Positions 37,464-52,253 of a stretch of DNA of 64,000 bases are shown here, piece by piece; position 1 is the stretch's first letter, and each line of letters begins with the position of its first letter. This DNA is from Flavobacterium sp. HSC-32F16 (GTDB lineage: Bacteria > Bacteroidota > Bacteroidia > Flavobacteriales > Flavobacteriaceae). The stretch lies in assembly GCF_024171645.1 (NCBI RefSeq), contig NZ_JALKAC010000001.1, positions 930,001 through 994,000 of the forward strand, in the 5' to 3' direction. Position numbers and translations under genes: made by a program. The notes under the pieces are model-generated. The model was not told the origin of the DNA and ran no database searches. It worked only from the letters and a program-made list of their open reading frames with translations.

Positions 37464-37494
37464 AAAAAAACCGAGCCATTTCTAACTCGGTTTA
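37464..37494 (-). terminator. Hairpin terminator at the end of the ATPase-nuclease cassette
   Basis: CCGAG pairs with CTCGG (extended by AAA/TTT) and a T7 run follows on the minus strand. Read on the minus strand, the 20-nt hairpin matches the plus-strand reading of the hairpin at 39121-39140 at 18 of 20 bases. Confidence 0.85.
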
Positions 37495-37932
37495 TTTTGG
37501 TATATATTTAAATTCTCTACTTTTAATTTCTAAAAGTCTTCCATATCTTTTAGCAAAAGCCTGTTTTAAATTATTAGTTTCTGTACTTGATAAAGGATTT
37601 CTTGAACTAATAATAAATCCAAACCTTTTATCTTTTGGAATTCTTATTATTGTAGATTCAAAAATACTTATTGTACTAATTATTTGACATAATGCAATCT
37701 TAACATCTTTTCCTTTAAGCTCTATAAAATAAAAATCATTGTTTAAATGTCTAACAAATCCAAAATCACATTTTTGGACTTGTTTCGAAGTGATCAAACA
37801 ATCATCTATTCTGATTTTTGTGAAATCTTCTTTAGAATCAATTTCAAATCTTTTTCCATTCTCAGAAGCTACTTTACTTTTTGAACAACAATCTTGATTT
37901 GCTTTAATTAATTCATCAAAACTATTGTGCAT
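37492..37932 (-). CDS. Small PD-(D/E)XK-type nuclease, partner of the upstream ATPase
   Basis: A 146-residue cytoplasmic protein. A PD-(D/E)XK core can be read: Asp56 in KCDFGFVRH, then Glu71-Leu-Lys73 in FYFIELKGKD, with Gln83 in ALCQII as a possible additional active-site residue in the next helix. Spacing and strand pattern (D-x14-ExK, then helix) fit small resolvase/restriction-like nucleases. Its ATG overlaps the ATPase stop by 11 bp, so the two are translationally coupled. The predicted role is the effector of a two-component nucleic-acid-targeting defence unit; the activity is inferred from the motif. Confidence 0.65.
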   Translation of the reverse strand: MHNSFDELIKANQDCCSKSKVASENGKRFEIDSKEDFTKIRIDDCLITSKQVQKCDFGFVRHLNNDFYFIELKGKDVKIALCQIISTISIFESTIIRIPKDKRFGFIISSRNPLSSTETNNLKQAFAKRYGRLLEIKSREFKYIPK

Positions 37933-39079
37933 ATCGTAACTCTGTTAATTTGTCAAATTCCTCAGAAATAATATCTGATACCCCATCAATTGCATTGGTA
38001 TCTATACTACGAAACTCTTCATTTTTGATTGAATATACTTTTCCATCATTTCGTACTTCGTAAACAGAAATTTCATCAAAAGCTATCCATTTCTCCTCTG
38101 ATACAATTGAATTTATTTCTTCTTTTAAATTATGATGTTCATCGAACGTATTTTTTGCAAGTATTAACGTATCAAGAGAAGAAAGAATATATGGGCTATG
38201 AGTTGTAATAACAGTTGTGTGTTTCGTATTATTAAGTTTTAATGCAATGTGATCAATTAATCTCTTTTGTTTAATAGGAAATAAATTTAACTCCGGTTCT
38301 TCAACTATTAATGTCTTTGAGTATTTAAAATCGGTTTGATTCATTTTTATTTCATAATCAATAACTAACAACAAAGGAATTAAAGATTGGATTCCACTCG
38401 ATGCAGCGCTCAACAATACCTTTGTATTATTTATTAAAACCTCATCACCACCTTTTTCATAATTATAATCTATACCAAGATCCTCAAACCTTGCAGATGG
38501 AATTTCCGCTCTTGCAACTTCATATTTAGCCGCAAAGTCTTTATAACATTCCGGTAAAGCAACATTATTAGCCCATAATCCCGATAGTGAATTACCTATC
38601 AAAGAAAATAAAATCCTCTCAGCTGGTATATATGTTGAGGATCTGTCATTTAAAAACTTATTAAATGCAAGTTCTAAAAATTTTTCTTTATCAAAATCCA
38701 GAAATTGAGGGAAAGTTGATTGTTTTGTTAAATTATCAAGTTTGATTCTAATATCCTCAATATTATATTGCTTAAGTTCAATATCGGTTAACACGATCTC
38801 ATTATCAACTAATTCACATAAAATTATATTTTCGTCACAATATTTAATCTCTGCCTTTTCTATATTAAAATCAATATTATATGCCTTTAATTCATTTTTG
38901 ATATTTATCTTTAATGAATTTGTTATTGATAAGCGTAAATAACTATCTCTAAATATAGCTATCAACTTCGCCAAAACACTTTTCCCTGTAGAGGTATCTC
39001 CAATAAACACAACATATTTAGTCAAATTTATTTCAGCTTCTTTTATTGGCCCGAAATTTTTAACTATTAATTTTTCCAT
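37922..39079 (-). CDS. AAA/ABC-type ATPase (OLD/RecF-like) of a two-gene defence-like cassette
   Basis: A 385-residue ATPase. Walker A is GDTSTGKS at residues 27-34, close to the N-terminus after IKEAEINL, as in AAA15/OLD/RecF-like proteins. A signature-like SSGIQSLIPLLL (~230) precedes Walker B SKTLIVEEPELNLFP (~255-270) and the H-loop TVITTHSPYILSSL. The gap between Walker A and B (~220 residues) holds a helical/coiled arm. There is no TOPRIM domain; the nuclease part is the separate downstream gene. Such ATPases act as sensors or loaders in OLD-, Septu- and PARIS-like systems. A terminator-like hairpin precedes it. Confidence 0.8.
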   Translation of the reverse strand: MEKLIVKNFGPIKEAEINLTKYVVFIGDTSTGKSVLAKLIAIFRDSYLRLSITNSLKINIKNELKAYNIDFNIEKAEIKYCDENIILCELVDNEIVLTDIELKQYNIEDIRIKLDNLTKQSTFPQFLDFDKEKFLELAFNKFLNDRSSTYIPAERILFSLIGNSLSGLWANNVALPECYKDFAAKYEVARAEIPSARFEDLGIDYNYEKGGDEVLINNTKVLLSAASSGIQSLIPLLLVIDYEIKMNQTDFKYSKTLIVEEPELNLFPIKQKRLIDHIALKLNNTKHTTVITTHSPYILSSLDTLILAKNTFDEHHNLKEEINSIVSEEKWIAFDEISVYEVRNDGKVYSIKNEEFRSIDTNAIDGVSDIISEEFDKLTELRYAQ

Positions 39080-41557: not shown

Positions 41558-42604
41558 TCAATCTTTCATGTATGAAAAACCGTTATTGCTTGCAATAGTG
41601 ATTAACGGCTGAATAGTTTCCTTGTATCGTAAATAATCAAGTCCACTATTACCATCTAAATCTGGAAAAATACTAAGATATTCCTCCAAATATTTGTTCT
41701 TTGAATTATGACTTTTCACTATTTCATAAGCAGTCTTTTGCAGAGTATAAAACTTATCAAAATACCTATCTAGAGATGGAAGTTTATCACTTTTCAAGGA
41801 ATTAAAGTTTTTATCAATTGGAATTAGATTCCAAATTAAATCATGAGAAACAAACGCATGAGGTACAAAATGGTCCAAAGCATATTTTTTTTCATCAAAC
41901 AATAATCTGTTATTGGTAAACACACAATCTATTGCACCCAGTTCATTAAATACCAATTTCCAATATTCATTTGTCTGTTTCATTAAAGAATTCCTGACTA
42001 ATGATTTGCTTATTTTATTTGGAATATCCGGAACATTTGGATTTCTTTTTTGGAGGAAAAGTGATAAATTCCAATAACAGAAATCTTTAAGTATTTTTGA
42101 ATTTAATTTTAGATAAGATATCCACATAGGATTTATCTCTATAGAATCTTTTTCTAACCGGTAAATACATCCATGATCAAAATTCTGAGAGAGGGAATAA
42201 ATTTCATTACGATTTCCGGAAAACCAAGAAGAAATAAACCAATGAGGTACATTTTTATCGAAATGATTCAATAGCTTAAGAGTTTCAATCTTCTGAGTAT
42301 TTTCTAAAACAGAATTTATTACGCTTCTATTTTCATTTATCTTAAGATCTTCAATTTTTAGAATAGCTTTAACTGCATCTTGAATAAGATCTTGTTTACC
42401 AAAAGAAATATGAAAATAATTAACTGTATACCAAGAATTACTAATCATTCTTGACAATATCCTTCGCTTATCAATATATGTGCTTCCTTCTTCTACTAAT
42501 TCTAGAATAGCTAAAAACCAATAAAACTTATAAGTTGCGGAAGTATTTGCAAATACAGAAGATAATTTATTTATTGACAAATATTTGGAATATGGCAGGC
42601 TCAT
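41558..42604 (-). CDS. HNH-endonuclease domain protein
   Basis: The frame opens at 42667, but the ATG at 42604 (MSLPYSKYLSINKLSSVFAN) gives a more natural helical N-terminus, leaving 348 residues. The HNH motif lies near residue 245 from that start: LDHFVPHAF, then WNLIPIDKNFNSLKSDKLP (Asp-His, a central Asn, and a late Asn/Lys). The first ~240 residues are helical with aromatic clusters (KFYWFLAIL, NPMWISYL) and no recognised fold; they may sense or bind the partner. It is the distal gene of a run of three minus-strand nuclease-type genes, 102 bp after the PLD gene. A role in DNA cleavage is inferred. Confidence 0.75.
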   Translation of the reverse strand: MSLPYSKYLSINKLSSVFANTSATYKFYWFLAILELVEEGSTYIDKRRILSRMISNSWYTVNYFHISFGKQDLIQDAVKAILKIEDLKINENRSVINSVLENTQKIETLKLLNHFDKNVPHWFISSWFSGNRNEIYSLSQNFDHGCIYRLEKDSIEINPMWISYLKLNSKILKDFCYWNLSLFLQKRNPNVPDIPNKISKSLVRNSLMKQTNEYWKLVFNELGAIDCVFTNNRLLFDEKKYALDHFVPHAFVSHDLIWNLIPIDKNFNSLKSDKLPSLDRYFDKFYTLQKTAYEIVKSHNSKNKYLEEYLSIFPDLDGNSGLDYLRYKETIQPLITIASNNGFSYMKD

Positions 42605-42706
42605 AAAACCATTTAGATTTAAAATATTATTGAAATACTTCGGAAGTTGTAAGTGAAGCGAAAACAAAACTAATAGAAAGTCGGCATCGTATAATACTTA
42701 TTAAAT

Positions 42707-43498
42707 TTATTTCAATTTTTCAAGACGTTGCTGGGCTTTTGTCAAAATTTCTTCACTAAATAAAACTTTATATTTATCTTTCTGAATTATGCTTTCAATT
42801 GTAAGATCTAGCCTATTTATTTCAAACATTTTAAGTAGTCCAGAATGTAACTTCTCTGTGCCCTCTTTTATTAGACGATTTGCTGCACCAATAGCTCCGT
42901 AATCATAAATCTGGTTCAGTATTATTGATTTGTTAATTTTTGCACCTGCTTTTAATGACAGATCAATTGATGAAATTAATTCATCATGCAACTGGTTTTC
43001 TAAAATTATGAATTCATTTTCTTTTGTATCAGCACAAAAAACATCATTTGCTAACAAAGCTCTTTTGTCGTATTGGATAACAATTTCTTTTAATTTATTG
43101 AAACGAATGAAAAACTGTTTTATTAGCTGCGTTTCTTCACTTTGTACAATAAATTCATGGTTATAATATTCAGCAGAATTTGTCCAATTATAGGAACCAG
43201 CAATTAATTTAGTATTGTCAAATATTGCATATTTGTCATGCAAAAATTTCCCACTTCTAGCTGATAAAACGTAAACTTTTCCACCTTTATTTATAAATTT
43301 TTCGAAAGATAATCTTGTATTTTCATAGTGGTCACTTATGATAATTTCTACAGAACAGCCAGTATCTAATTTGTCACTTAACTGCCCAAGCAGATCTTTA
43401 CTAGTAAACCATGCAACTGACACAATAATTGATTCTCTAGCGGAATAAATATTTGATTCAATTTTTTTCTTAATGTCTTTAAATGATGCTGTTGTCAT
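42707..43498 (-). CDS. Phospholipase D-like (HKD) nuclease-family protein
   Basis: A 263-residue protein with one PLD-like domain in the first ~140 residues: ESIIVSVAWFTS, a first-strand EIIISDHY, and the HKD motif FLHDKYAIFD (His87, Lys89, Asp94), followed by GSYNWTNSAEYYNHE (the conserved Asn-Trp and Glu). Proteins with a single HKD usually dimerise to form the active site, as in Nuc and BfiI. The C-terminal half is helical and basic. It is predicted to be a DNA or RNA phosphodiesterase. It lies 83 bp from the GIY-YIG gene in the same orientation, so cotranscription is plausible but not shown. Confidence 0.85.
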   Translation of the reverse strand: MTTASFKDIKKKIESNIYSARESIIVSVAWFTSKDLLGQLSDKLDTGCSVEIIISDHYENTRLSFEKFINKGGKVYVLSARSGKFLHDKYAIFDNTKLIAGSYNWTNSAEYYNHEFIVQSEETQLIKQFFIRFNKLKEIVIQYDKRALLANDVFCADTKENEFIILENQLHDELISSIDLSLKAGAKINKSIILNQIYDYGAIGAANRLIKEGTEKLHSGLLKMFEINRLDLTIESIIQKDKYKVLFSEEILTKAQQRLEKLK

Positions 43499-43581
43499 AA
43501 ATTGTCATAAGGCAATGATAAAATTTTATATAAGACTACTTACTTGCGATGCTGGGTATTATGGCTAGTTGACCTTATAAT

Positions 43582-44229
43582 TCACATATTGTCCGCAATA
43601 TTACTGTAAGTTAAATCCAAAAATACACTTCCGTTCCATTCGTCATTTACAGATGGATTAATCATATCGAATGTTTTCCCATCTTTTCTTATGGAACGAT
43701 AAATTCTTATTCTTTCAGATAAATTAAGAAGTTCCGCTTGATATTCTGGAGGTAAAAGTATATTTTTTTTCCAGGTTTCCATAATATGCTTATATATCAG
43801 TAACGAACATGCAAACCATTCACCCTGCCTCCTATCAGATTCAAATTTTTTATGAAGCTCTAATTCTTTTTTTCTACTACCAGGTTCCATTGCATGAATT
43901 ATTAATTTGCTTTCTGAACCTGTTTTAAGGCTTCGAATCCTTTGCCGAACGTTTTTTGTTATTCCTATTTTAACTTGCAACCCATCATAAGGGTTTTTGT
44001 TAATTGAACCACCCATCCAATTATCAGGTATTGCAAGTATATAATATATCGAAATTGCATTATTCGATGGTGCATTTTGGAACCAAAACACCCAATCTTT
44101 AGCGGCATTAATTGAATCTTCTTTCGCATCAAAAATTTCTGTAAAATAAATAATTTCTCCAGTTAAATTAAGGACCTGAGTTTGGAACTTTGATCGAAGT
44201 ACAATTATTTTAAATTTAAATTTTTCCAA
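43582..44229 (-). CDS. GIY-YIG (T5orf172/MUG113-like) domain protein
   Basis: A 215-residue protein whose central part matches the T5orf172/MUG113 subtype of the GIY-YIG nuclease fold: VKIGITKNVRQRIRSLKTG (the Lys-Ile-Gly-Ile-Thr and Arg of the motif), then SRKKELELHKKFESDRRQGEWF (the His-x-x-Phe and the Glu-Trp-Phe end). An upstream YYILAIPDNW could be the first GIY strand. The domain occurs in homing/phage nucleases and in defence genes. It is the first gene of the minus-strand trio and is divergent from the methyltransferase operon across a 229-bp shared promoter region. Confidence 0.8.
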   Translation of the reverse strand: MEKFKFKIIVLRSKFQTQVLNLTGEIIYFTEIFDAKEDSINAAKDWVFWFQNAPSNNAISIYYILAIPDNWMGGSINKNPYDGLQVKIGITKNVRQRIRSLKTGSESKLIIHAMEPGSRKKELELHKKFESDRRQGEWFACSLLIYKHIMETWKKNILLPPEYQAELLNLSERIRIYRSIRKDGKTFDMINPSVNDEWNGSVFLDLTYSNIADNM

Positions 44230-44416
44230 TTTCCATTTATATAAATGTTAGTGTATAATTAACTTCATTATATGCCTAAATTAATTTACAGAAATTCCCA
44301 ACAGATGTCGACAAGGTAATTTGTGTATTATATTTCAAAAATAATCAAAAAGGATACAAAATCAACGTCAAAAAAATTTATAATATGCATTACAAATTTT
44401 GTTCAACTTCAATCAC

Positions 44417-44424
44417 TATATTTG
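44417..44424 (+). promoter_or_regulatory. -7 box (TATATTTG) for the methyltransferase operon
   Basis: TATATTTG matches TAnnTTTG, 34 bp before the TTG start at 44459. A TTTTG lies only 15 bp upstream, so the -33 element is uncertain. The whole 44230-44458 gap is divergent and should carry promoters for both directions. Confidence 0.5.
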
Positions 44425-44458
44425 ATAATTGAAAAATACTAACCTCAAGAATATATAA

Positions 44459-45673
44459 TTGAATTTAATATCTAAAAAGAAAACTAAAAAATTGATCTTT
44501 GATAGTGATGTACCTCACATCACTAAGTATATGGGTTCTAAAAGAAATATACTAAAGTTTGTTATAGACAATATTGCTGAAATACACAGAGGTGAAGAAA
44601 TCTGTGACCTTTTCGCTGGAACTTGTATTTTATCAGGTGCATTAAGAAATACTGCCTCTATGCATTCTAATGATATTCAAAATTATTCGTCATATATTGC
44701 TAAAACATATTTATCAAATCATGATTGGAATACTTATCCCGAAGATATTATTGATCTTGTAATCAATCAAGGTCAAGCATATAAAAAAGAAATTGGTGAA
44801 AAATTTAATAAACTGAATTTCAATTATGAAAACATTACTTCATTAGAAGAATTTAATAAACTAGAAGATGATCAAAAGTGTTTAATAAACGAAACTTTTG
44901 AGAATACTCCTTACCATCTATTTATTAAAAATTATTCAGGTACATACTGGTCTTATGATCAGTGCCTTGCAATTGATGCTTTTAGAAAGATCGCTGATGA
45001 TTATAAAGAAACGCCTTTACATTATGTCATAATATCAAGTATAATTTTTGCAATGTCATACACTTCCCAAAGTACTGGTCACTATGCACAATATCGAAAT
45101 GCAAAAGATATAAATTCGATGCTTGACATAAAAAAATATAGAATAAAAGATTTTGATTTTTATTTTAGAAGGAAAATGGAAGAGCTTAAAAGTGTCTTAA
45201 GTACAAATAATCTTAACCACAAAGTAACTAACTTGGATTACTTAGATTGTTTGAAAGATATAAGTACAGGATCAACGGTTTATGCTGATCCCCCATATGG
45301 ATTTGTTCACTATTCCCGTTTTTATCATGCTCTCGAAACTCTCGTTAATTATGATTATCCTGAATTAAAATATAAAGGCAGATATAGAACTGATCGCCAT
45401 CAATCACCTTTTAGCAAGAGTAAAGATGTAAGAGTTGCATTTGAAAAAATGTTTAATAAAATTAATTCAAAACAAGCGCAACTTATCTTAAGTTATAGTA
45501 GTACTGGAATGATACGATTAGATGAAATTGTAGAAATTGCAAATTCAAGCTTTGACTTTAATTACGATATAAGTGTTAAATCGATTGATCATTTACATAG
45601 CACAATGGGAAGAAGTGAAGATAAATCACGAGAAGTTAAAGAATACCTAATTATAGCAAAAAGAAAAAAATGA
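44459..45673 (+). CDS. D12-class N6-adenine DNA methyltransferase
   Basis: A 404-residue methyltransferase of the Dam/D12 class. The N-terminal YMGSKRNIL (K-x-x-G-type motif X), the SAM motif EEICDLFAGTCILSGAL, and the catalytic motif ADPPYGFVHYSRFYHALETL (Asp277-Pro-Pro-Tyr) are in the expected order, with a target-recognition insert in between. The only start available is TTG at 44459; a stop codon lies one base upstream in the same frame. It overlaps the next gene by 4 bp (ATGA). It probably methylates adenine in a short site and protects host DNA from the neighbouring nucleases (inference). Confidence 0.88.
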   Translation: MNLISKKKTKKLIFDSDVPHITKYMGSKRNILKFVIDNIAEIHRGEEICDLFAGTCILSGALRNTASMHSNDIQNYSSYIAKTYLSNHDWNTYPEDIIDLVINQGQAYKKEIGEKFNKLNFNYENITSLEEFNKLEDDQKCLINETFENTPYHLFIKNYSGTYWSYDQCLAIDAFRKIADDYKETPLHYVIISSIIFAMSYTSQSTGHYAQYRNAKDINSMLDIKKYRIKDFDFYFRRKMEELKSVLSTNNLNHKVTNLDYLDCLKDISTGSTVYADPPYGFVHYSRFYHALETLVNYDYPELKYKGRYRTDRHQSPFSKSKDVRVAFEKMFNKINSKQAQLILSYSSTGMIRLDEIVEIANSSFDFNYDISVKSIDHLHSTMGRSEDKSREVKEYLIIAKRKK

Positions 45674-47889
45674 GTGCAAAATTAGACATAACAAAACTAG
45701 CAATGTCATGGACAAAATACAGTGTAGTCCAACTGATTGACGTTATATCGAGTGAAGAAGAAATACAAAAGTTCAAAAATAAGGAAAAAGGAATCGACGA
45801 AGTTTGCTTGAAAAAATTTTTAGGCATACACAATCTATCTGATGAAACTCCTCCTATTTGGATTGAAATACAAAAACATCCGAAACAGAAAAGATTATTT
45901 GCTTTATTAGGGCTTATTTTTACACATTATGAGAACATATCCAATTTTGCTAATTCGTATTCAAATGACAAAATGGGTGGGATTTTCTTAATGGCATCAG
46001 GAAAGCAATTTACAAATATGAGAGGTGCATTAGTAATTTCGGGGGCTTCTTTAAATAGCTTTAGAAGAAAAGACGAAGTTCCTTATAGTTTTAAGCCTTT
46101 ATATGAAAATGGAGAAGTCGGTAAATTATTTAAAGATTTATTGATCCAGAGATTAACCTCTATTGGGTGGGAGGGAGAAAATTTTTATGATGTTTGCTAT
46201 GAATTAAATTTTCATAAAGCAGTCAGTTTGACAGAGGGCCAATTCAAAGAGTGGACTGAAGGTAAAACTTTGGTAAAAAGCAAGTTAATAGACAATCTTG
46301 AATCTTTAAAAAAAAATAATAAAATTACAACTTATAAAGTAGACCAATGGTTAAAAGAATGGGATGACATAAATTTTGCAGCTGATGAAATGAGAAAAAA
46401 GCCCAACCCATTTTTTATAATGTTTAAAATGGATGCCCGCCTTTTAAAACGCCTTTCAGACGTACATAGAAGAAAGTCCGCCGATTCTTCTATTAAAGAC
46501 TTATCTGTTCAAAGACCACATAACGAAAGTAGGTCACAAGAGATCCATAATTATATTCATGGGGGGTTTCCGTGGTCAACTATCTCTGAGACTCAAAGAC
46601 AGTCCGAAGAGTATAAAGACTTGAAAATGCCAGGAATACTTCCAACCGCTATAATTGCAAATATTCTTGCTCCAAATTCTGAGAGGGGAAAATATTCTCT
46701 ACAATTAGAAGATTCTATTCAAATTGAAAATATTGATAGCGACTTTCCTGTTTTAAAAATTCCTGATAGTGTTTTTACTGAAGATTGGGATCCAAATTTA
46801 AAACCATTTGAAATCATTGATGGACAGCATCGATTATGGGCATTTGATGAAGAAGAAGATTTAAATGGTAATTACGAATTACCTGTGATCGCATATTATG
46901 ACTTAGACAGGGCTTGGCAAGCATATTTATTTTATACTATAAATATTAAACCTGTCAAGATCAATACAAGTTTAGGATATGATTTATATCCTTTGCTAAG
47001 AACTCAAAACTGGTTAGAACCTTTAAATGATGGTTTAACATTTTATCGTGAAAATAGAGCTCAGGAATTAGTGGAAGCACTTTGGATCTATAAAGAAAGT
47101 CCGTGGAGAAATCGAATTAAAATGTTAGGAGAAGGTGAAGGCAATATTAGTCAGGCTTCATTTATAAACACTTTAACAAGTTCTTTTTTAAAGAAACCGA
47201 GCAATAAAGGAATTGGGGGATTATTCTCTAACTTAATTACCCAAGGAGGAAAAAATAAAGTATTAAATTGGAACAGAACTCAACAAGCAGGGTTTTTAAT
47301 ATTATTCTGGGACTTAATTCTCGAAAGTTTAAATGACTATTTACCATCAGAAGAAGAAGAAGAAGAAGAAATAGATACACTACGAGAAGAACCATTGTGG
47401 GCAAGATCAATTAGAGAAACCGAAAAGGAAGATGACAGAATTGAAGGAATGCACCCCGCATTCACTTCAAAAAATTCTTTTTTATCTAGAGATCAAGGAG
47501 TAAGAGGCGTATCAATGTTTCTCAACGATTTCTTTTACTTTCTTGCAAGTGATGATTCAATATTAAATCTTAACGAATTAGCTTGGGACGATGATTTAGA
47601 TGAGAAGACAATACTTGCTGATAGTATTGATAAAGCTATTCAGGATTTCAAAAAACATGATATTTACGCTGTTCTAAAATCCCTTTCCCGCGAAATTATA
47701 AAAATGGATTGGAGAACTGGTTCATCTGATTTTAGTGACAATCCTGAACAGAAATTTAAGCAAATGAGTTATAAAGGTAGTAGCGGTTATACAATGATTT
47801 GGAAAGAACTTACTAGTGTAATATCTAACTCAAAGGATTTAATTATAAGTAAATACGCTAATCAAATTTCTGAATTTATAAAATCATAA
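45670..47889 (+). CDS. Large DGQHR-domain (DndB-like) protein
   Basis: A 739-residue protein. The DGQHR motif occurs at residues 384-388 in FEIIDGQHRLWAF, followed by PVIAYYDLDRAWQAYLFYTIN, as in DndB/DpdB-type proteins whose fold relates to ParB/Srx. Unlike usual DGQHR proteins (~350-400 residues), it has an extra N-terminal ~230-residue domain (KQFTNMRGALVISG, then WEGENFYDVCYELNFHKAVS) and a Glu-rich stretch near 560 (EEEEEEEI). DndB is a transcriptional regulator with reported ATPase activity in phosphorothioation systems. Here it is fused in an operon with an adenine methyltransferase, so it may control modification or nuclease action. Confidence 0.8.
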   Translation: MSAKLDITKLAMSWTKYSVVQLIDVISSEEEIQKFKNKEKGIDEVCLKKFLGIHNLSDETPPIWIEIQKHPKQKRLFALLGLIFTHYENISNFANSYSNDKMGGIFLMASGKQFTNMRGALVISGASLNSFRRKDEVPYSFKPLYENGEVGKLFKDLLIQRLTSIGWEGENFYDVCYELNFHKAVSLTEGQFKEWTEGKTLVKSKLIDNLESLKKNNKITTYKVDQWLKEWDDINFAADEMRKKPNPFFIMFKMDARLLKRLSDVHRRKSADSSIKDLSVQRPHNESRSQEIHNYIHGGFPWSTISETQRQSEEYKDLKMPGILPTAIIANILAPNSERGKYSLQLEDSIQIENIDSDFPVLKIPDSVFTEDWDPNLKPFEIIDGQHRLWAFDEEEDLNGNYELPVIAYYDLDRAWQAYLFYTINIKPVKINTSLGYDLYPLLRTQNWLEPLNDGLTFYRENRAQELVEALWIYKESPWRNRIKMLGEGEGNISQASFINTLTSSFLKKPSNKGIGGLFSNLITQGGKNKVLNWNRTQQAGFLILFWDLILESLNDYLPSEEEEEEEIDTLREEPLWARSIRETEKEDDRIEGMHPAFTSKNSFLSRDQGVRGVSMFLNDFFYFLASDDSILNLNELAWDDDLDEKTILADSIDKAIQDFKKHDIYAVLKSLSREIIKMDWRTGSSDFSDNPEQKFKQMSYKGSSGYTMIWKELTSVISNSKDLIISKYANQISEFIKS

Positions 47890-47891
47890 AA

Positions 47892-49259
47892 ATGGAAAAT
47901 TTTATAAACTCAGCTTCAAATATACCTGTTATCGATGGCGTTGTACAAATCAAAAGTACTCTTTTAGCCAGTCAGCAAGTTATTAGCTCTACTAATCGTT
48001 TATTATTACCAGACTATAAAACTGTAATAAGTAATCATTTAGATGGTTCTGATGTATTGTCAAATACTGAAATCAACACTTTTTTAGCATCCACAGCGTT
48101 ATTACATTGTTTAGATGGTTGGGGATATTTATCACATGCAATTGATGGTTTAATTTCAGGAGATAGCAGAATTGCAATTCATTTAGGTTATTATTCGGAA
48201 TTAAGAGCTTCTATGTCTTTTCTTTCTTCAGAAGGAATAGGAATATTTAATAATGGTTATATTTCAGCTGATGCCACTAATAGTATACAGCGAAATCCCT
48301 CTCGAGATAGAGTAACTGCAACCTCAATTAATGCTAGTACTCATCAATTCATTTGGAATAGTTTAGATACATGGATAAACTCTATTGTTAAACCCTCAAA
48401 TCCCTCTGATCTTTTAGGTGTGTTTACAGTGGATGGGAAGAATTTTAATGACTGGTTGACTCATTTTCCCTATACTTCTCCAAATTCTGGGATTTTAGTT
48501 TTAAAAAATTGGCTATCATCTTGGAATTTTGATATAAATCATTTTAAAAAAGATCGAGAGGTAAGAAATATAGTGAGTTATCAGACACCTAATTTAAATG
48601 TTTCTCAAAATATTTATACTCTTAATCAAAATATTGACAAATTAAATTCTTTTTGGGATATTCTTGAACCTTCAGGAAACAATAGATTTCAATTACTCGA
48701 TAAGTATTTATTACGTGAATTATTAAGAATTATTTACGATCAGCAAACAAACTCTGTAAAACTCGCAAATACTTTTGAAAGTTTAGTAAGAAAAACAATA
48801 ACTAATATGGGACTTACAGTTCAACAATCGTTTGTCAATTTTATGATTTCTCATGACCAACATGATTTATTTGTCGAATCTTTTAATACAACAATAGACC
48901 CTGCTACAAATTCATTAAACCCATTATCTGTCATCGCTAGAGCAACCCTGATGCTAAGAATTTCAACAGGTAGTGTTTCTCATATACTTAATAGTGGAGG
49001 AATGACCAAAGAAGATTTAGATTTTGTGTGGGACAAATATGGTCTTGAAAATGGTTTTTGGACCACTGGAGACTTACCGGAGAATTTTATTTCGCTCTGG
49101 GAAGATATAAAAGATGAAGTAGAGGTAGTTACAACTTGGGCTAATACAAAAAAACCTGATCTTGATTTACATACAATTTATAACGATGTTAGTGTACCAT
49201 ATTCTTTAAATTTTTTCAAACAATTTCATAGAGCTGGCCTATGGGGAATGTCAATTTGA
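47892..49259 (+). CDS. Unknown protein of the methyltransferase-DGQHR operon
   Basis: A 455-residue cytoplasmic protein that starts 2 bp after the DGQHR gene, so it is the third gene of the operon. It is helical and Ser/Asn-rich, with AIHLGYYSELRASMSFLSSEGIGI, then STHQFIWNSLDTWI and RATLMLRISTGSVSHIL. I recognise no nuclease, ATPase or methyltransferase motif. The YYSELRASMSFLSSEGI helix is a possible HEPN-like or YaaC-like helical-bundle element, but I see no R-x4-6-H catalytic motif. Its place suggests an obligatory partner of the other two proteins. Confidence 0.6.
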   Translation: MENFINSASNIPVIDGVVQIKSTLLASQQVISSTNRLLLPDYKTVISNHLDGSDVLSNTEINTFLASTALLHCLDGWGYLSHAIDGLISGDSRIAIHLGYYSELRASMSFLSSEGIGIFNNGYISADATNSIQRNPSRDRVTATSINASTHQFIWNSLDTWINSIVKPSNPSDLLGVFTVDGKNFNDWLTHFPYTSPNSGILVLKNWLSSWNFDINHFKKDREVRNIVSYQTPNLNVSQNIYTLNQNIDKLNSFWDILEPSGNNRFQLLDKYLLRELLRIIYDQQTNSVKLANTFESLVRKTITNMGLTVQQSFVNFMISHDQHDLFVESFNTTIDPATNSLNPLSVIARATLMLRISTGSVSHILNSGGMTKEDLDFVWDKYGLENGFWTTGDLPENFISLWEDIKDEVEVVTTWANTKKPDLDLHTIYNDVSVPYSLNFFKQFHRAGLWGMSI

Positions 49260-49643: not shown

Positions 49644-50804
49644 TTATTCTTTACGTACAAAGTCTTCTTCATTCTTTATTATTCTTGAGACTTTATTAAA
49701 TCCGGATTCTGAACTAATCCCACTTAAAGTTTTTCCTAAAATCCAGTCGTAATCATTTAACCTGCTTTTAAAGATGATTTCCTCAAAATTGGACAAAACA
49801 TTGCTATTAAAAGTATTTTCAAAATGATTTTTTAATAGGTCAGAAATGATATAATTTATTGATTTGCAACCTAATGTTTTTTGAATATAGAAACTTGGAT
49901 TATAAACGATTGACTTGTATTGGCTATCGATATCAATAACTTTATGCGGATCAAGAAAAGCGTTGGGCCATTTCCTATTTACAATTTTCCAAGATTCAAT
50001 AATAAAATTACTAATTTCTTTAGCAGAATTTCTTGAAAAGTCTATTAATTCTTGATTTTCTAATGTACTGACAATTTTAGAATGCTTATTAATGTAACTT
50101 AATATAATTCCTGAAATAGCTTCACTAAATGCTTTGACTCCTATAATTCCAATTTTAAACTCAGAATGAATATCAATTTTTATTGCATTTTGCCAAACAT
50201 TTTCAATAGTAAAATCTTCATTTAGGTAATATGCTGTATTTATTGCAATATGTTGGGTTAATTCACTTTTACCTATTTTATTTTCAATGATCCTGTAATC
50301 ATATTTTGCAAGTTCAATTAAGTCCGTTTTTAATCTTTTTGCTTTTGAGTTAATGTTACTAAATATTTCCATTTCGATGGATCTCTTGTTTTCAGGAGTA
50401 ATAATTATGGATATTTGTAAACCCAAGTCATTTAGAGATGAATCATTTTTCAATGCATTTTCAAGACCTAATAGTCTATGCTGACCGTCGACAACTCTAA
50501 AAATCTGGCTGTCAATTTTTTCAAAATTAAAATATACAATACCATCTCCTTTGTCTTCCTTGACAATATCTTTTAATCTTGTTTCATCTATAGCCAAAAT
50601 GATTGAATTAGGAAATATAAAATCTTTTGTTTCAATGTATTTTTTAATGTTTAAGTAATGTTTTTCATCTTGGGCTCTTTGATATCCCCCCTCATCAATG
50701 CCATATATTAGAGTATTACTTAAACGGTTAGTTAGACCGAATGGTAATACCGTTGAAACTAGATCATATTTTGATTGCTTATATTTGATACCTGGGAAAT
50801 TCAT
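49644..50804 (-). CDS. DGQHR-domain (DndB-like) protein paired with a RelA/SpoT-like gene
   Basis: A 386-residue protein with the DGQHR motif starting at Asp106 in FRVVDGQHRLLGLENA, followed by LQISIIITPENKRSIEMEIFSNINSKAKRL, a typical DGQHR-family core (the 'FxxIN' segment). The N-terminus carries YGIDEGGYQRAQDEKH, and the C-terminal half is helical and unassigned. It begins 3 bp after the stop of the RelA/SpoT-like gene, so the two are one unit. DGQHR proteins regulate or support DNA-modification systems elsewhere. A role as regulator, neutraliser or sensor for the nucleotidyltransferase partner is inferred. Confidence 0.8.
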   Translation of the reverse strand: MNFPGIKYKQSKYDLVSTVLPFGLTNRLSNTLIYGIDEGGYQRAQDEKHYLNIKKYIETKDFIFPNSIILAIDETRLKDIVKEDKGDGIVYFNFEKIDSQIFRVVDGQHRLLGLENALKNDSSLNDLGLQISIIITPENKRSIEMEIFSNINSKAKRLKTDLIELAKYDYRIIENKIGKSELTQHIAINTAYYLNEDFTIENVWQNAIKIDIHSEFKIGIIGVKAFSEAISGIILSYINKHSKIVSTLENQELIDFSRNSAKEISNFIIESWKIVNRKWPNAFLDPHKVIDIDSQYKSIVYNPSFYIQKTLGCKSINYIISDLLKNHFENTFNSNVLSNFEEIIFKSRLNDYDWILGKTLSGISSESGFNKVSRIIKNEEDFVRKE

Positions 50805-50807
50805 AAT

Positions 50808-52253
50808 TTAATTTAAGCTACTTATTAGTTTTGACAGATTTGAAGTAATTGAACTTTTGGAGTCAATAGATAATTTTTCTATTTCATTTTTTGTTTGCTC
50901 AAGTTTTTGTGTCAATTGATCTTTATCAATGGTTTGACAATAATCATAGATGTTACCATTAAAGGTATGAATTGAGTAAACTGAAATAATTTGTTCAATT
51001 ATGTCTTGATCTAATTCTAAAACTTCAATTGCATCTATTAGAATTTTTAGATTATCAATGTGAGTGTATAAATCCTTAGTATTTAATATATATTCTTTAC
51101 AATCATAGCTTAAACAAGCTTTGAAAATGGTTTCTACAATAAACAATGCTAATTCTTCATCCTGAATTAGTCTATTTTCAGTAATCATTTTAATATAAGA
51201 TTGTTTTATTAAAGTAAAATAATTATCTAAGTTATTCTCTAAATTTTTTTGATCTATAGGAGTGTCAAGATTTGAGAGAATTATTGATTCAAAAATTTGA
51301 AGGTCAAAATTTTCATTTCGATATTTTATATAGAAACTAAATTTTTCTAGCTCTATTGATTGATAGTCTGTATTTATATCTACATTATCTAGAATATTAG
51401 AATTTACCTGACTTATATTATAACAAATTGAAGCAATTTTTTTAAAATTATATGGTATGCCATTTAGTTTTTCTCGAATTGTTCTAGAATAATTTTCCTC
51501 AAATTGATTGATGAATAAAATAACTCGAGAGTTGATTGAAAAATTATCGTTAGCACTTCTAATTTCTTGAAGAAAACCATCAATTTCAATTAATAGTTTC
51601 CCAATATGGTTCATTGATTGTTGTGCTAGATCTCTGACAGGCGTTACTTTGTAATCTTTATAGAAGATCGAGTGTTCCATATCTCCCCAAGCTGATTCAA
51701 GTTTACTTTTGATTTGTAGTTCAAACTTCCAATCTTCAAATTGACATCTTATTTTATATATGTTTAATCCATTCTGCATTCGAACAGGTTGCTTTTTTAG
51801 ATCATCTTCATTTAATTCAATGCCTTTACCTCTAGCATTTGTGATAAAATTTGACGAAGTAATTAACTTATACATATTGATTGTGTCAATATTTAAATCA
51901 GTTAAAATTTTGACACCAATAATATCCTCAACTTCTTTTAGTTTCGACTTAAGTTCGACTTGATTAAAGTTTTCTACATTTTCTAAAATTGGATCAAACA
52001 CGTTATAATCATTGTTTCTAATTAGTTTTTCAGACAGACTATTTGGTTCTTTTACTCTAGAAACAACAGTATAGAATTTTAACTTTTTAACACTATCATG
52101 TTTAGATAAATTAAATTCTTCTGAATAATCCTGGATGATATCAGATAGTATTTTTTTTAGTCTAGCCTCGCAAGCAATAAATTCTTCTCGAAAATCTTCA
52201 AATTTTGTGACTATTTTTTCAATTCTAATTAATTTATCTGCAATTGCTCTCAT
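50808..52253 (-). CDS. RelA/SpoT-like nucleotidyltransferase-domain protein
   Basis: A 481-residue protein with a RelA/SpoT synthetase-like domain at residues ~30-200: SRVKEPNSLSEKL (Arg66, Lys68, Ser72, Lys76, the pyrophosphate-binding pattern), EDIIGVKI (Asp110, metal ligand), WKFELQIKS (Glu178, the second catalytic acid) and ESAWGDMEHSIFYKD. The guanine-stacking Tyr of the usual GYxSxH motif appears replaced by Leu163 (NGLNIYKIRC), so the acceptor may not be GDP/GTP; related toxins pyrophosphorylate tRNA or ATP. The C-terminal ~280 residues are helical and unlike TGS/ACT domains. It starts the two-gene unit. Confidence 0.8.
   Translation of the reverse strand: MRAIADKLIRIEKIVTKFEDFREEFIACEARLKKILSDIIQDYSEEFNLSKHDSVKKLKFYTVVSRVKEPNSLSEKLIRNNDYNVFDPILENVENFNQVELKSKLKEVEDIIGVKILTDLNIDTINMYKLITSSNFITNARGKGIELNEDDLKKQPVRMQNGLNIYKIRCQFEDWKFELQIKSKLESAWGDMEHSIFYKDYKVTPVRDLAQQSMNHIGKLLIEIDGFLQEIRSANDNFSINSRVILFINQFEENYSRTIREKLNGIPYNFKKIASICYNISQVNSNILDNVDINTDYQSIELEKFSFYIKYRNENFDLQIFESIILSNLDTPIDQKNLENNLDNYFTLIKQSYIKMITENRLIQDEELALFIVETIFKACLSYDCKEYILNTKDLYTHIDNLKILIDAIEVLELDQDIIEQIISVYSIHTFNGNIYDYCQTIDKDQLTQKLEQTKNEIEKLSIDSKSSITSNLSKLISSLN

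What the first reader, a model, noticed from the sequence alone, without database searches (positions are those of the whole stretch)
41558..49259. Divergent cluster: adenine methyltransferase, long DGQHR protein, unknown protein, and three different nuclease folds
On the plus strand a D12-class methyltransferase overlaps a 739-aa DGQHR protein by 4 bp, and a 455-aa unknown follows after 2 bp. Divergent across 229 bp are GIY-YIG, PLD (HKD) and HNH domain proteins. The layout resembles a modification module facing a restriction module, but with three distinct nuclease folds and a DndB-like protein instead of a helicase, PglZ or Dnd gene. It does not match BREX, DISARM, Dnd or classical type I-III R-M gene sets. 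Whether all six genes form one system or adjacent systems is inference.
Basis: partly seen in the sequence, partly recalled or inferred. Interest (0 to 1): 0.85.

Follow-up and report, generated by a model that had tools for sequence, protein, structure and literature searches.

The report
Modification-linked ParB-like three-gene defence cassette
This locus holds a DNA methyltransferase gene next to genes for a ParB-like DGQHR protein and an unstudied, predicted helical partner, a pair that recurs in 17 named phyla beside varying DNA-modification genes and likely defends cells by telling marked from unmarked DNA; the three nuclease genes beside it do not travel with it.

The parts
44459..45673 (+). 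D12-class (N6-adenine type) DNA methyltransferase, 404 aa as called; motifs DLFAGT and DPPYG present
   Evidence: PF02086 4.8e-14; PADLOC MTase_II 5e-29; the only PF02086 match in the window's genome
45670..47889 (+). DGQHR protein, 739 aa: N-terminal extension of about 210 aa (long forms, Bacteroidota in the loci fetched) plus ParB/Srx-fold NTPase domain (about residues 243-435, IIDGQHR at 382-388) plus helical C-terminal part
47892..49259 (+). Conserved unknown (UNK), 455 aa, predicted mostly helical; Y100, Y101, H151, D214, R225, Y230, R350 invariant
   Evidence: (87 sequences), model pLDDT 89.6, no PDB match with E<=0.001
43582..44229 (-). GIY-YIG-like (MUG113/T5orf172) protein: neighbour, not part of the conserved cassette
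42707..43498 (-). PLD-like (HKD) protein: neighbour, not part of the conserved cassette
41558..42667 (-). HNH_4 protein (likely start about 42604): neighbour; in 12 of 24 fetched relatives the next gene is a protein of 281-291 aa (a methyltransferase-HIT fusion in L106) that is absent here

Best explanation
The plus-strand genes form a three-gene cassette, DNA methyltransferase plus DGQHR ParB-fold protein plus a conserved protein predicted to be helical (UNK), that likely works as a compact restriction-modification-like defence: the methyltransferase would mark host DNA, and the DGQHR-UNK pair would load on DNA and act against DNA that lacks the mark. Shown: the pair is a near-obligate unit; its DNA-modification partner has been exchanged repeatedly; the DGQHR protein carries a DGQHR domain whose model resembles ParB; the cassette is found in viral contigs, on plasmids and, in some loci, near other defence genes. 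Inferred: that the pair is the effector arm; that NTP turnover on marked DNA releases it, as published for the ParB-fold effector DndI; and that UNK supplies or recruits the damaging activity. The three nuclease genes beside it are independent neighbours.
For: (1) DGQHR-UNK adjacency in 88 of 89 loci (80 genome, 9 viral contigs), overlap or gap of 30 bp or less in 85 of 87 measured; the 80 genome loci cover 17 named phyla, bacteria and archaea. (2) A methyltransferase frame within 200 bp in 77 of 88: long D12 54, short D12 17, N6_N4 6. Of the other 11, three are cut by contig ends (L010, L015, L036), four lie with dnd genes (L043 and L045 scanned; L068 and L032 by clustering; L032 rests on one partial desulfurase-like ORF), one has an MT-A70 gene 96 bp away on the other strand (L049), three have none. 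(3) The fewest changes of modification class on the DGQHR tree is 13 (quick tree, one doubtful tip). (4) DGQHR and UNK distances correlate (rho 0.68, 0.69, 0.90 in sets of 55, 47, 17) more than DGQHR and methyltransferase (0.60, 0.36, 0.64) or UNK and methyltransferase (0.50, 0.48, 0.68). (5) DGQHR motif 88 of 88; several UNK polar residues 87 of 87. (6) ParB match. (7) Context: type I R-M genes near L009, L030, L070, L077, a retron-type RT near L074; integrase, tail or filamentous-phage genes in viral contigs; plasmids. (8) Precedent read as passages: DndI, a ParB-fold NTPase + HNH whose ATPase is stimulated by marked self DNA (PMC11662687).
Against: No nuclease or helicase domain was found in DGQHR or UNK; UNK's PADLOC hits are weak (PbeC 7e-4, PDC-S32 6e-3, Cas2c 0.02). 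Three loci have the pair without a modification gene in reach (L023, L056, L074), though L056 is cut 125 bp upstream and the genomes of L023 and L056 hold a D12 gene elsewhere; L074's shows none. In the dnd loci a restriction gene (dnd_restrict_1, over its cut-off in L043, under it in L045) is also present, so the pair need not be the effector there. The Z. mobilis ZM4 methylome (PMC8432527, passages) lists three m6A motifs, each assigned or presumed for another enzyme; I do not know whether that strain carries plasmid pZZM405 with the cassette, so this neither supports nor refutes. No record of 50,697 phages matched one short-form DGQHR query. Defence context was checked in chosen loci without a control set. 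Loci were chosen by similarity to the window's DGQHR (best 80 of 131).
Confidence: 0.5

Rival explanations
1. Modification helper or regulator: DGQHR-UNK assists, targets or restrains the modification enzyme, as DpdB does for 7-deazaguanine insertion and DndB is reported to do for phosphorothioation; the cassette has no restriction arm of its own.
For: DGQHR relatives in Dpd and Dnd act on the modification side (PMC12839542 and PMC10853773, passages); the pair goes with unrelated modification chemistries; no nuclease domain found.
Against: From general knowledge (recalled), D12 methyltransferases work alone, so two conserved helpers across 17 phyla would be odd; the mobile and defence-gene settings suggest a selected phenotype.
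Confidence: 0.25
2. Abortive-infection version: UNK is a derived HEPN-like RNase, held in check while DNA is marked and released by DGQHR when unmarked DNA appears.
Confidence: 0.12
3. One reading: the trio with GIY-YIG, PLD and HNH nucleases as its restriction arm.
For: Compact divergent layout; one of 89 relatives (L072) has an HNH_4 gene near the trio (6e-8).
Against: No PLD or GIY relative in the flanks of any of 89 loci (54 of 88 with at least 5 kb on both sides); each nuclease has relatives without the trio, weak ones for GIY-YIG; the closest HNH relative (80% identical, same genus) sits without the trio beside ORFs that look like an IS3-type transposase (label recalled).
Confidence: 0.04
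4. Selfish maintenance cassette of plasmids and prophages: loss of the methyltransferase leaves DGQHR-UNK to harm the cell, so the carrier is kept, with defence only a by-product.
For: Viral-contig and plasmid carriage, some with integrases nearby.
Against: Mobile genes were checked only in viral contigs and plasmids; the reading needs the same effector activity as the best explanation.
Confidence: 0.07

Closest known systems
DndI / SspE (ParB-fold DUF262 + HNH) phosphorothioation-sensing effectors
   Same: ParB/Srx NTPase paired with a DNA modification; the published self-mark sensing gives the proposed mechanism (PMC11662687, passages)
   Different: Here a DGQHR (PF14072/TIGR03187) protein, no HNH domain, a separate unknown partner, and mostly base methyltransferases instead of phosphorothioation
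Dnd DndB and Dpd DpdB
   Same: DGQHR-family ParB-fold proteins next to DNA-modification genes
   Different: Family profiles of 352-355 positions against proteins of about 500-740 aa here; scores far under the family cut-offs or no hit; I saw no UNK-like partner in the passages read on those systems
HEPN_MAE_28990 in operon with ParB nuclease and DNA methylase (Anantharaman et al. 2013, PMC3710099, Table 1, passages)
   Same: Same three-part idea: ParB-type protein, DNA methylase, helical partner
   Different: UNK is not recognised as that family; none of 12 MAE_28990 loci fetched from the window's phylum holds DGQHR, UNK or methyltransferase relatives of this cassette within flanks of about 1.5 kb
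DndDE core that recruits other nucleobase modifications (Rakesh, Aravind, Krishnan 2024, PMC10853773, abstract, passages and section 16)
   Same: A constant scanning pair combined with exchangeable modification enzymes
   Different: ABC ATPase + DndE there; ParB-fold DGQHR + UNK here
Swt1-like HEPN fused to ParB (Saro_3948 type; PMC3710099, passages)
   Same: Resembles the second, larger DGQHR protein (Hjc-like region + DGQHR + RNxxxH C-terminus) found beside the cassette in L006, L013 and, split, in L072
   Different: That second protein was seen in three of 89 loci and not in the window

Membership tests
ParB/Srx superfamily, DGQHR domain proteins | DGQHR domain over the curated cut-off with an intact DGQHR motif | tested here: met
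Dnd system (DndB) | DndB equivalog TIGR03233 | tested here: not met
   No hit for the 739-aa protein at E<=1; DGQHR_dnd_1 59 bits against 450
Dnd system | DndA/C/D/E genes beside it in the window | tested here: not met
   None among the ten ORFs scanned; other members of the family do have them
Dpd system | DpdB equivalog NF041060 | tested here: not met
   26.1 bits against 300
Dpd system | DpdA (TGT-like) gene | not tested
   Not searched genome-wide
BREX / DISARM | PglZ + BrxC, or DrmAB, beside it | tested here: not met
   No such hit among the ten ORFs scanned, not searched genome-wide; DrmC-like similarity is only the PLD domain (4.9e-12)
Type II R-M | Methyltransferase with a dedicated nuclease gene that travels with it | tested here: not met
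   After DGQHR, UNK and methyltransferase the commonest neighbour cluster is in 11 of 90 loci and two members scanned are integrases. Limit: nucleases of many unrelated families, one per locus, would not show
Type II R-M | Restriction activity blocked by the cognate methylation | not testable with these tools
   Needs the bench
GmrSD / SspE / DndI type | DUF262 plus DUF1524-type HNH | tested here: not met
   Neither domain in DGQHR or UNK
HEPN superfamily (for UNK) | Rx4-6H motif | tested here: not met
   Motif reads RNxxSY, Tyr in place of His
HEPN superfamily (for UNK) | HEPN fold | tested here: inconclusive
   Low-Z rows only; no sequence support

The most novel reading that the evidence does not exclude
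DGQHR-UNK is a modification-agnostic restriction core: one ParB-fold clamp and one new-fold partner that can be plugged onto N6-adenine, N4/N6 or phosphorothioate marking enzymes and destroys or silences whatever DNA lacks the mark, without a classical nuclease or helicase. That would be a new type of restriction-modification spanning bacteria and archaea.
Probability: 0.35. Interest if true: 0.85.

Novelty: new variant of a known kind. Interest (0 to 1): 0.63.

Why it matters
If true, a widespread defence type has been hidden because its two invariant proteins carry no recognised nuclease or helicase domain and one has no named family (UNK: no Pfam match over cut-off, no NCBIfam hit, weak PADLOC matches with best E 7e-4). 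The repeated exchange of the marking enzyme, including base methylation for phosphorothioation, would make a general rule testable: the sensor reads absence of a mark rather than one chemistry. It could also explain some D12 methyltransferases that have no recognised restriction partner.

Tried and rejected
Six-gene system: rejected on synteny. UNK as a known family: no Pfam hit over a cut-off in 23 members, no PDB relative by sequence (best E 1.3), no Foldseek match with E<=0.001 in PDB or BFVD; a missing match does not show a new fold. UNK as HEPN_MAE_28990: hhalign probability 0.1. Rosetta-stone fusions of UNK: none apparent in 41 proteins of 232-466 aa, but the length filter would miss long fusions. 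Solved relatives of DGQHR or the methyltransferase by sequence: none. Phage genome records: no match for one short-form DGQHR query; IMG/VR contigs do hold the cassette. The adjacent small DGQHR + RelA/SpoT pair as part of the system: rejected, it sits without the trio in a genus-mate, 92% identical DNA over 2.68 kb, and no RelA/SpoT relative occurs in the 89 loci (one weak small-DGQHR hit in L068). Papers: passages only of PMC4619093, PMC12839542, PMC8432527, PMC11662687, PMC3710099; passages, abstract and section list of PMC12704722; passages, abstract and section 16 of PMC10853773; others as search listings. Rows dropped before counts: the DGQHR set leaves out L010 (short) and L089 (split); the UNK set leaves out those under 380 aa; the gap count leaves out L022 and L089; L022 carries a doubtful N6_N4 label on the tree (gene not adjacent, contig ends), so the 13 changes include one doubtful tip. 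The DGQHR profile was built with two second-type DGQHR proteins in it; the loci score under 1e-100 with it. ORFs were called by a greedy longest-ORF script, so gap lengths depend on start choice. The IS3-type transposase label and the HEPN content of ROQ are recalled.
Full report
Observation. Domain calls agree: HNH_4, PLDc_2, GIY-YIG-like (MUG113/T5orf172), MethyltransfD12, DGQHR/DndB, and no family over its cut-off for the 455-aa protein. The HNH protein probably starts at about 42604.

What travels together. With an alignment of the DGQHR protein (A1) I fetched 80 genome loci (the best 80 of 131) and 9 viral-contig loci, with up to 10 kb on each side where the contig allowed; 54 of 88 have at least 5 kb on both sides. 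A relative of the unknown (UNK) lies directly after DGQHR in 88 of 89; in the exception, L022, the contig ends 68 bp after DGQHR. The two genes overlap or lie within 30 bp in 85 of 87 measured. The 80 genome loci cover 17 named phyla; 6 loci have no named phylum. Phmmer at E<=1e-3 finds no PLD or GIY-YIG relative of the window in the ORFs of these loci and one HNH relative (L072, 5.9e-8); relaxing to E<0.5 adds none.

The modification slot. Within 200 bp of the pair, 77 of 88 loci have a methyltransferase frame: 54 long D12 (47 after UNK, 7 before DGQHR), 17 short Dam-like D12 (14 after UNK on the same strand, 2 after it on the other strand, 1 before DGQHR) and 6 of the N6_N4 cluster (PF01555 in the member scanned), all before DGQHR. 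Of the remaining 11, L010, L015 and L036 are cut by contig ends. L043 and L045 lie among dnd genes: DndC and a DndD over the cut-offs in L043, dnd_restrict_1 over its cut-off in L043 and under it in L045, and a DndA/IscS-like desulfurase in L045. L068 and L032 are labelled dnd by clustering with those genes, L032 from one partial ORF on a 4-kb contig. L049 has an MT-A70 gene (PF05063) 96 bp beyond UNK on the other strand. L023, L056 and L074 show none; L056 is cut 125 bp upstream of DGQHR, and the genomes of L023 and L056, but not of L074, hold a D12 gene elsewhere.

Exchange of the partner. On a quick maximum-likelihood tree of 88 DGQHR proteins (SH-aLRT support only), the fewest changes of modification class is 13; the long-DGQHR, methyltransferase-first arrangement of the window needs one origin (8 rows, support 80), all in Bacteroidota. 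One tip (L022) has a doubtful label. Pairwise distances of DGQHR and UNK correlate more strongly (0.68, 0.69 and 0.90 in three sets of 55, 47 and 17 loci; the second set lies within the first) than those of DGQHR and methyltransferase (0.60, 0.36, 0.64) or UNK and methyltransferase (0.50, 0.48, 0.68), each above every one of 500 permutations. So DGQHR-UNK is the constant core and the marking enzyme the exchangeable part.

Setting. In loci picked by eye, type I R-M genes lie near L009, L030, L070 and L077, and a retron-type RT near L074; no control set was run. In viral contigs the cassette sits within a few kb of a tail tape-measure gene (L084, L088; also a sheath gene in L088), of filamentous-phage Zot-like genes (L083, L089) or of integrases (L082, L083, L085, L086). 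Plasmid copies include Zymomonas mobilis pZZM405 (DGQHR-UNK-Dam) and Rhizobium tumorigenes pRt932.

The nuclease neighbours. HNH relatives occur in 26 of 395 genomes of the window's phylum, its own among them; three of the 26 also have a DGQHR match, the window's own and two weak ones, G080 and G302. In 12 of 24 fetched HNH loci the next gene encodes a protein of 281-291 aa, which in L106 is a methyltransferase-HIT fusion. The window lacks it. The closest HNH relative (80% identical, same genus) stands next to ORFs that look like an IS3-type transposase (label recalled). The close PLD relatives (70-82%) are in G142, G174 and G033, which show no DGQHR or HNH match. GIY-YIG has four weak relatives in 295 other genomes.

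Mechanism. Best reading: the methyltransferase marks self DNA and DGQHR-UNK acts on unmarked DNA, with NTP turnover on marked DNA releasing the pair, as published for DndI (PMC11662687, passages). Shown here: linkage, exchange, fold class and context. Inferred: every functional step. The main rival is that the pair only assists or restrains modification, as DpdB does. I prefer the effector reading because a D12 methyltransferase needs no helper (general knowledge) and because some copies are carried by mobile elements or lie near defence genes; the preference is modest.

Novelty. A ParB-type protein, DNA methylase and HEPN combination was noted for HEPN_MAE_28990 in 2013 (PMC3710099, passages), and a scanning core that recruits different modifications was described for DndDE (PMC10853773, abstract and section 16). 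This cassette differs from both in its proteins. I found no paper on it in the open library with the searches; most subscription papers and preprints are not covered.

Noticed in passing
window 49644-52253 (-): A second, small DGQHR protein (386 aa) with a RelA/SpoT-domain protein (481 aa), 3 bp apart. A 92% identical copy of the pair stands without the trio in a genus-mate (L138), so it is an independent module, possibly a nucleotide-signal defence pair.
   Followed up: partly
window 37492-39079 (-): AAA_15 ATPase (385 aa) with a 146-aa partner, matching PADLOC candidate system PDC-M29A/B (3e-40 and 1e-8).
   Followed up: no
L006:6367-8691, L013:13660-16029, L072:6122-8404: A second, larger DGQHR protein beside the cassette: Hjc-like region (weak Pfam scores), DGQHR domain and, in L013, an RNxxxH-type C-terminus; split into two frames in L072, where an HNH_4 gene follows.
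   Followed up: partly
L106, L108-L110, L112, L114, L116-L118, L120, L121, L124: HNH_4 genes directly followed by, or overlapping, a gene of 281-291 aa (12 of 24 HNH loci fetched); L106's is a methyltransferase-HIT fusion. Looks like a separate conserved two-gene pair.
   Followed up: partly
L083, L089: The cassette in filamentous-phage-like contigs with Zot-like genes; in L089 DGQHR is broken into two frames and a reversed 520-aa ORF lies between DGQHR and UNK.
   Followed up: no
L082, L088: The short D12 methyltransferase is convergent (opposite strand) to UNK, so co-transcription is not required.
   Followed up: no
L043, L045, L068: DGQHR-UNK sits among dnd genes in two Pseudanabaena records and a Methanoregula record, near a dnd_restrict_1-type gene (L068 by clustering only).
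   Followed up: partly
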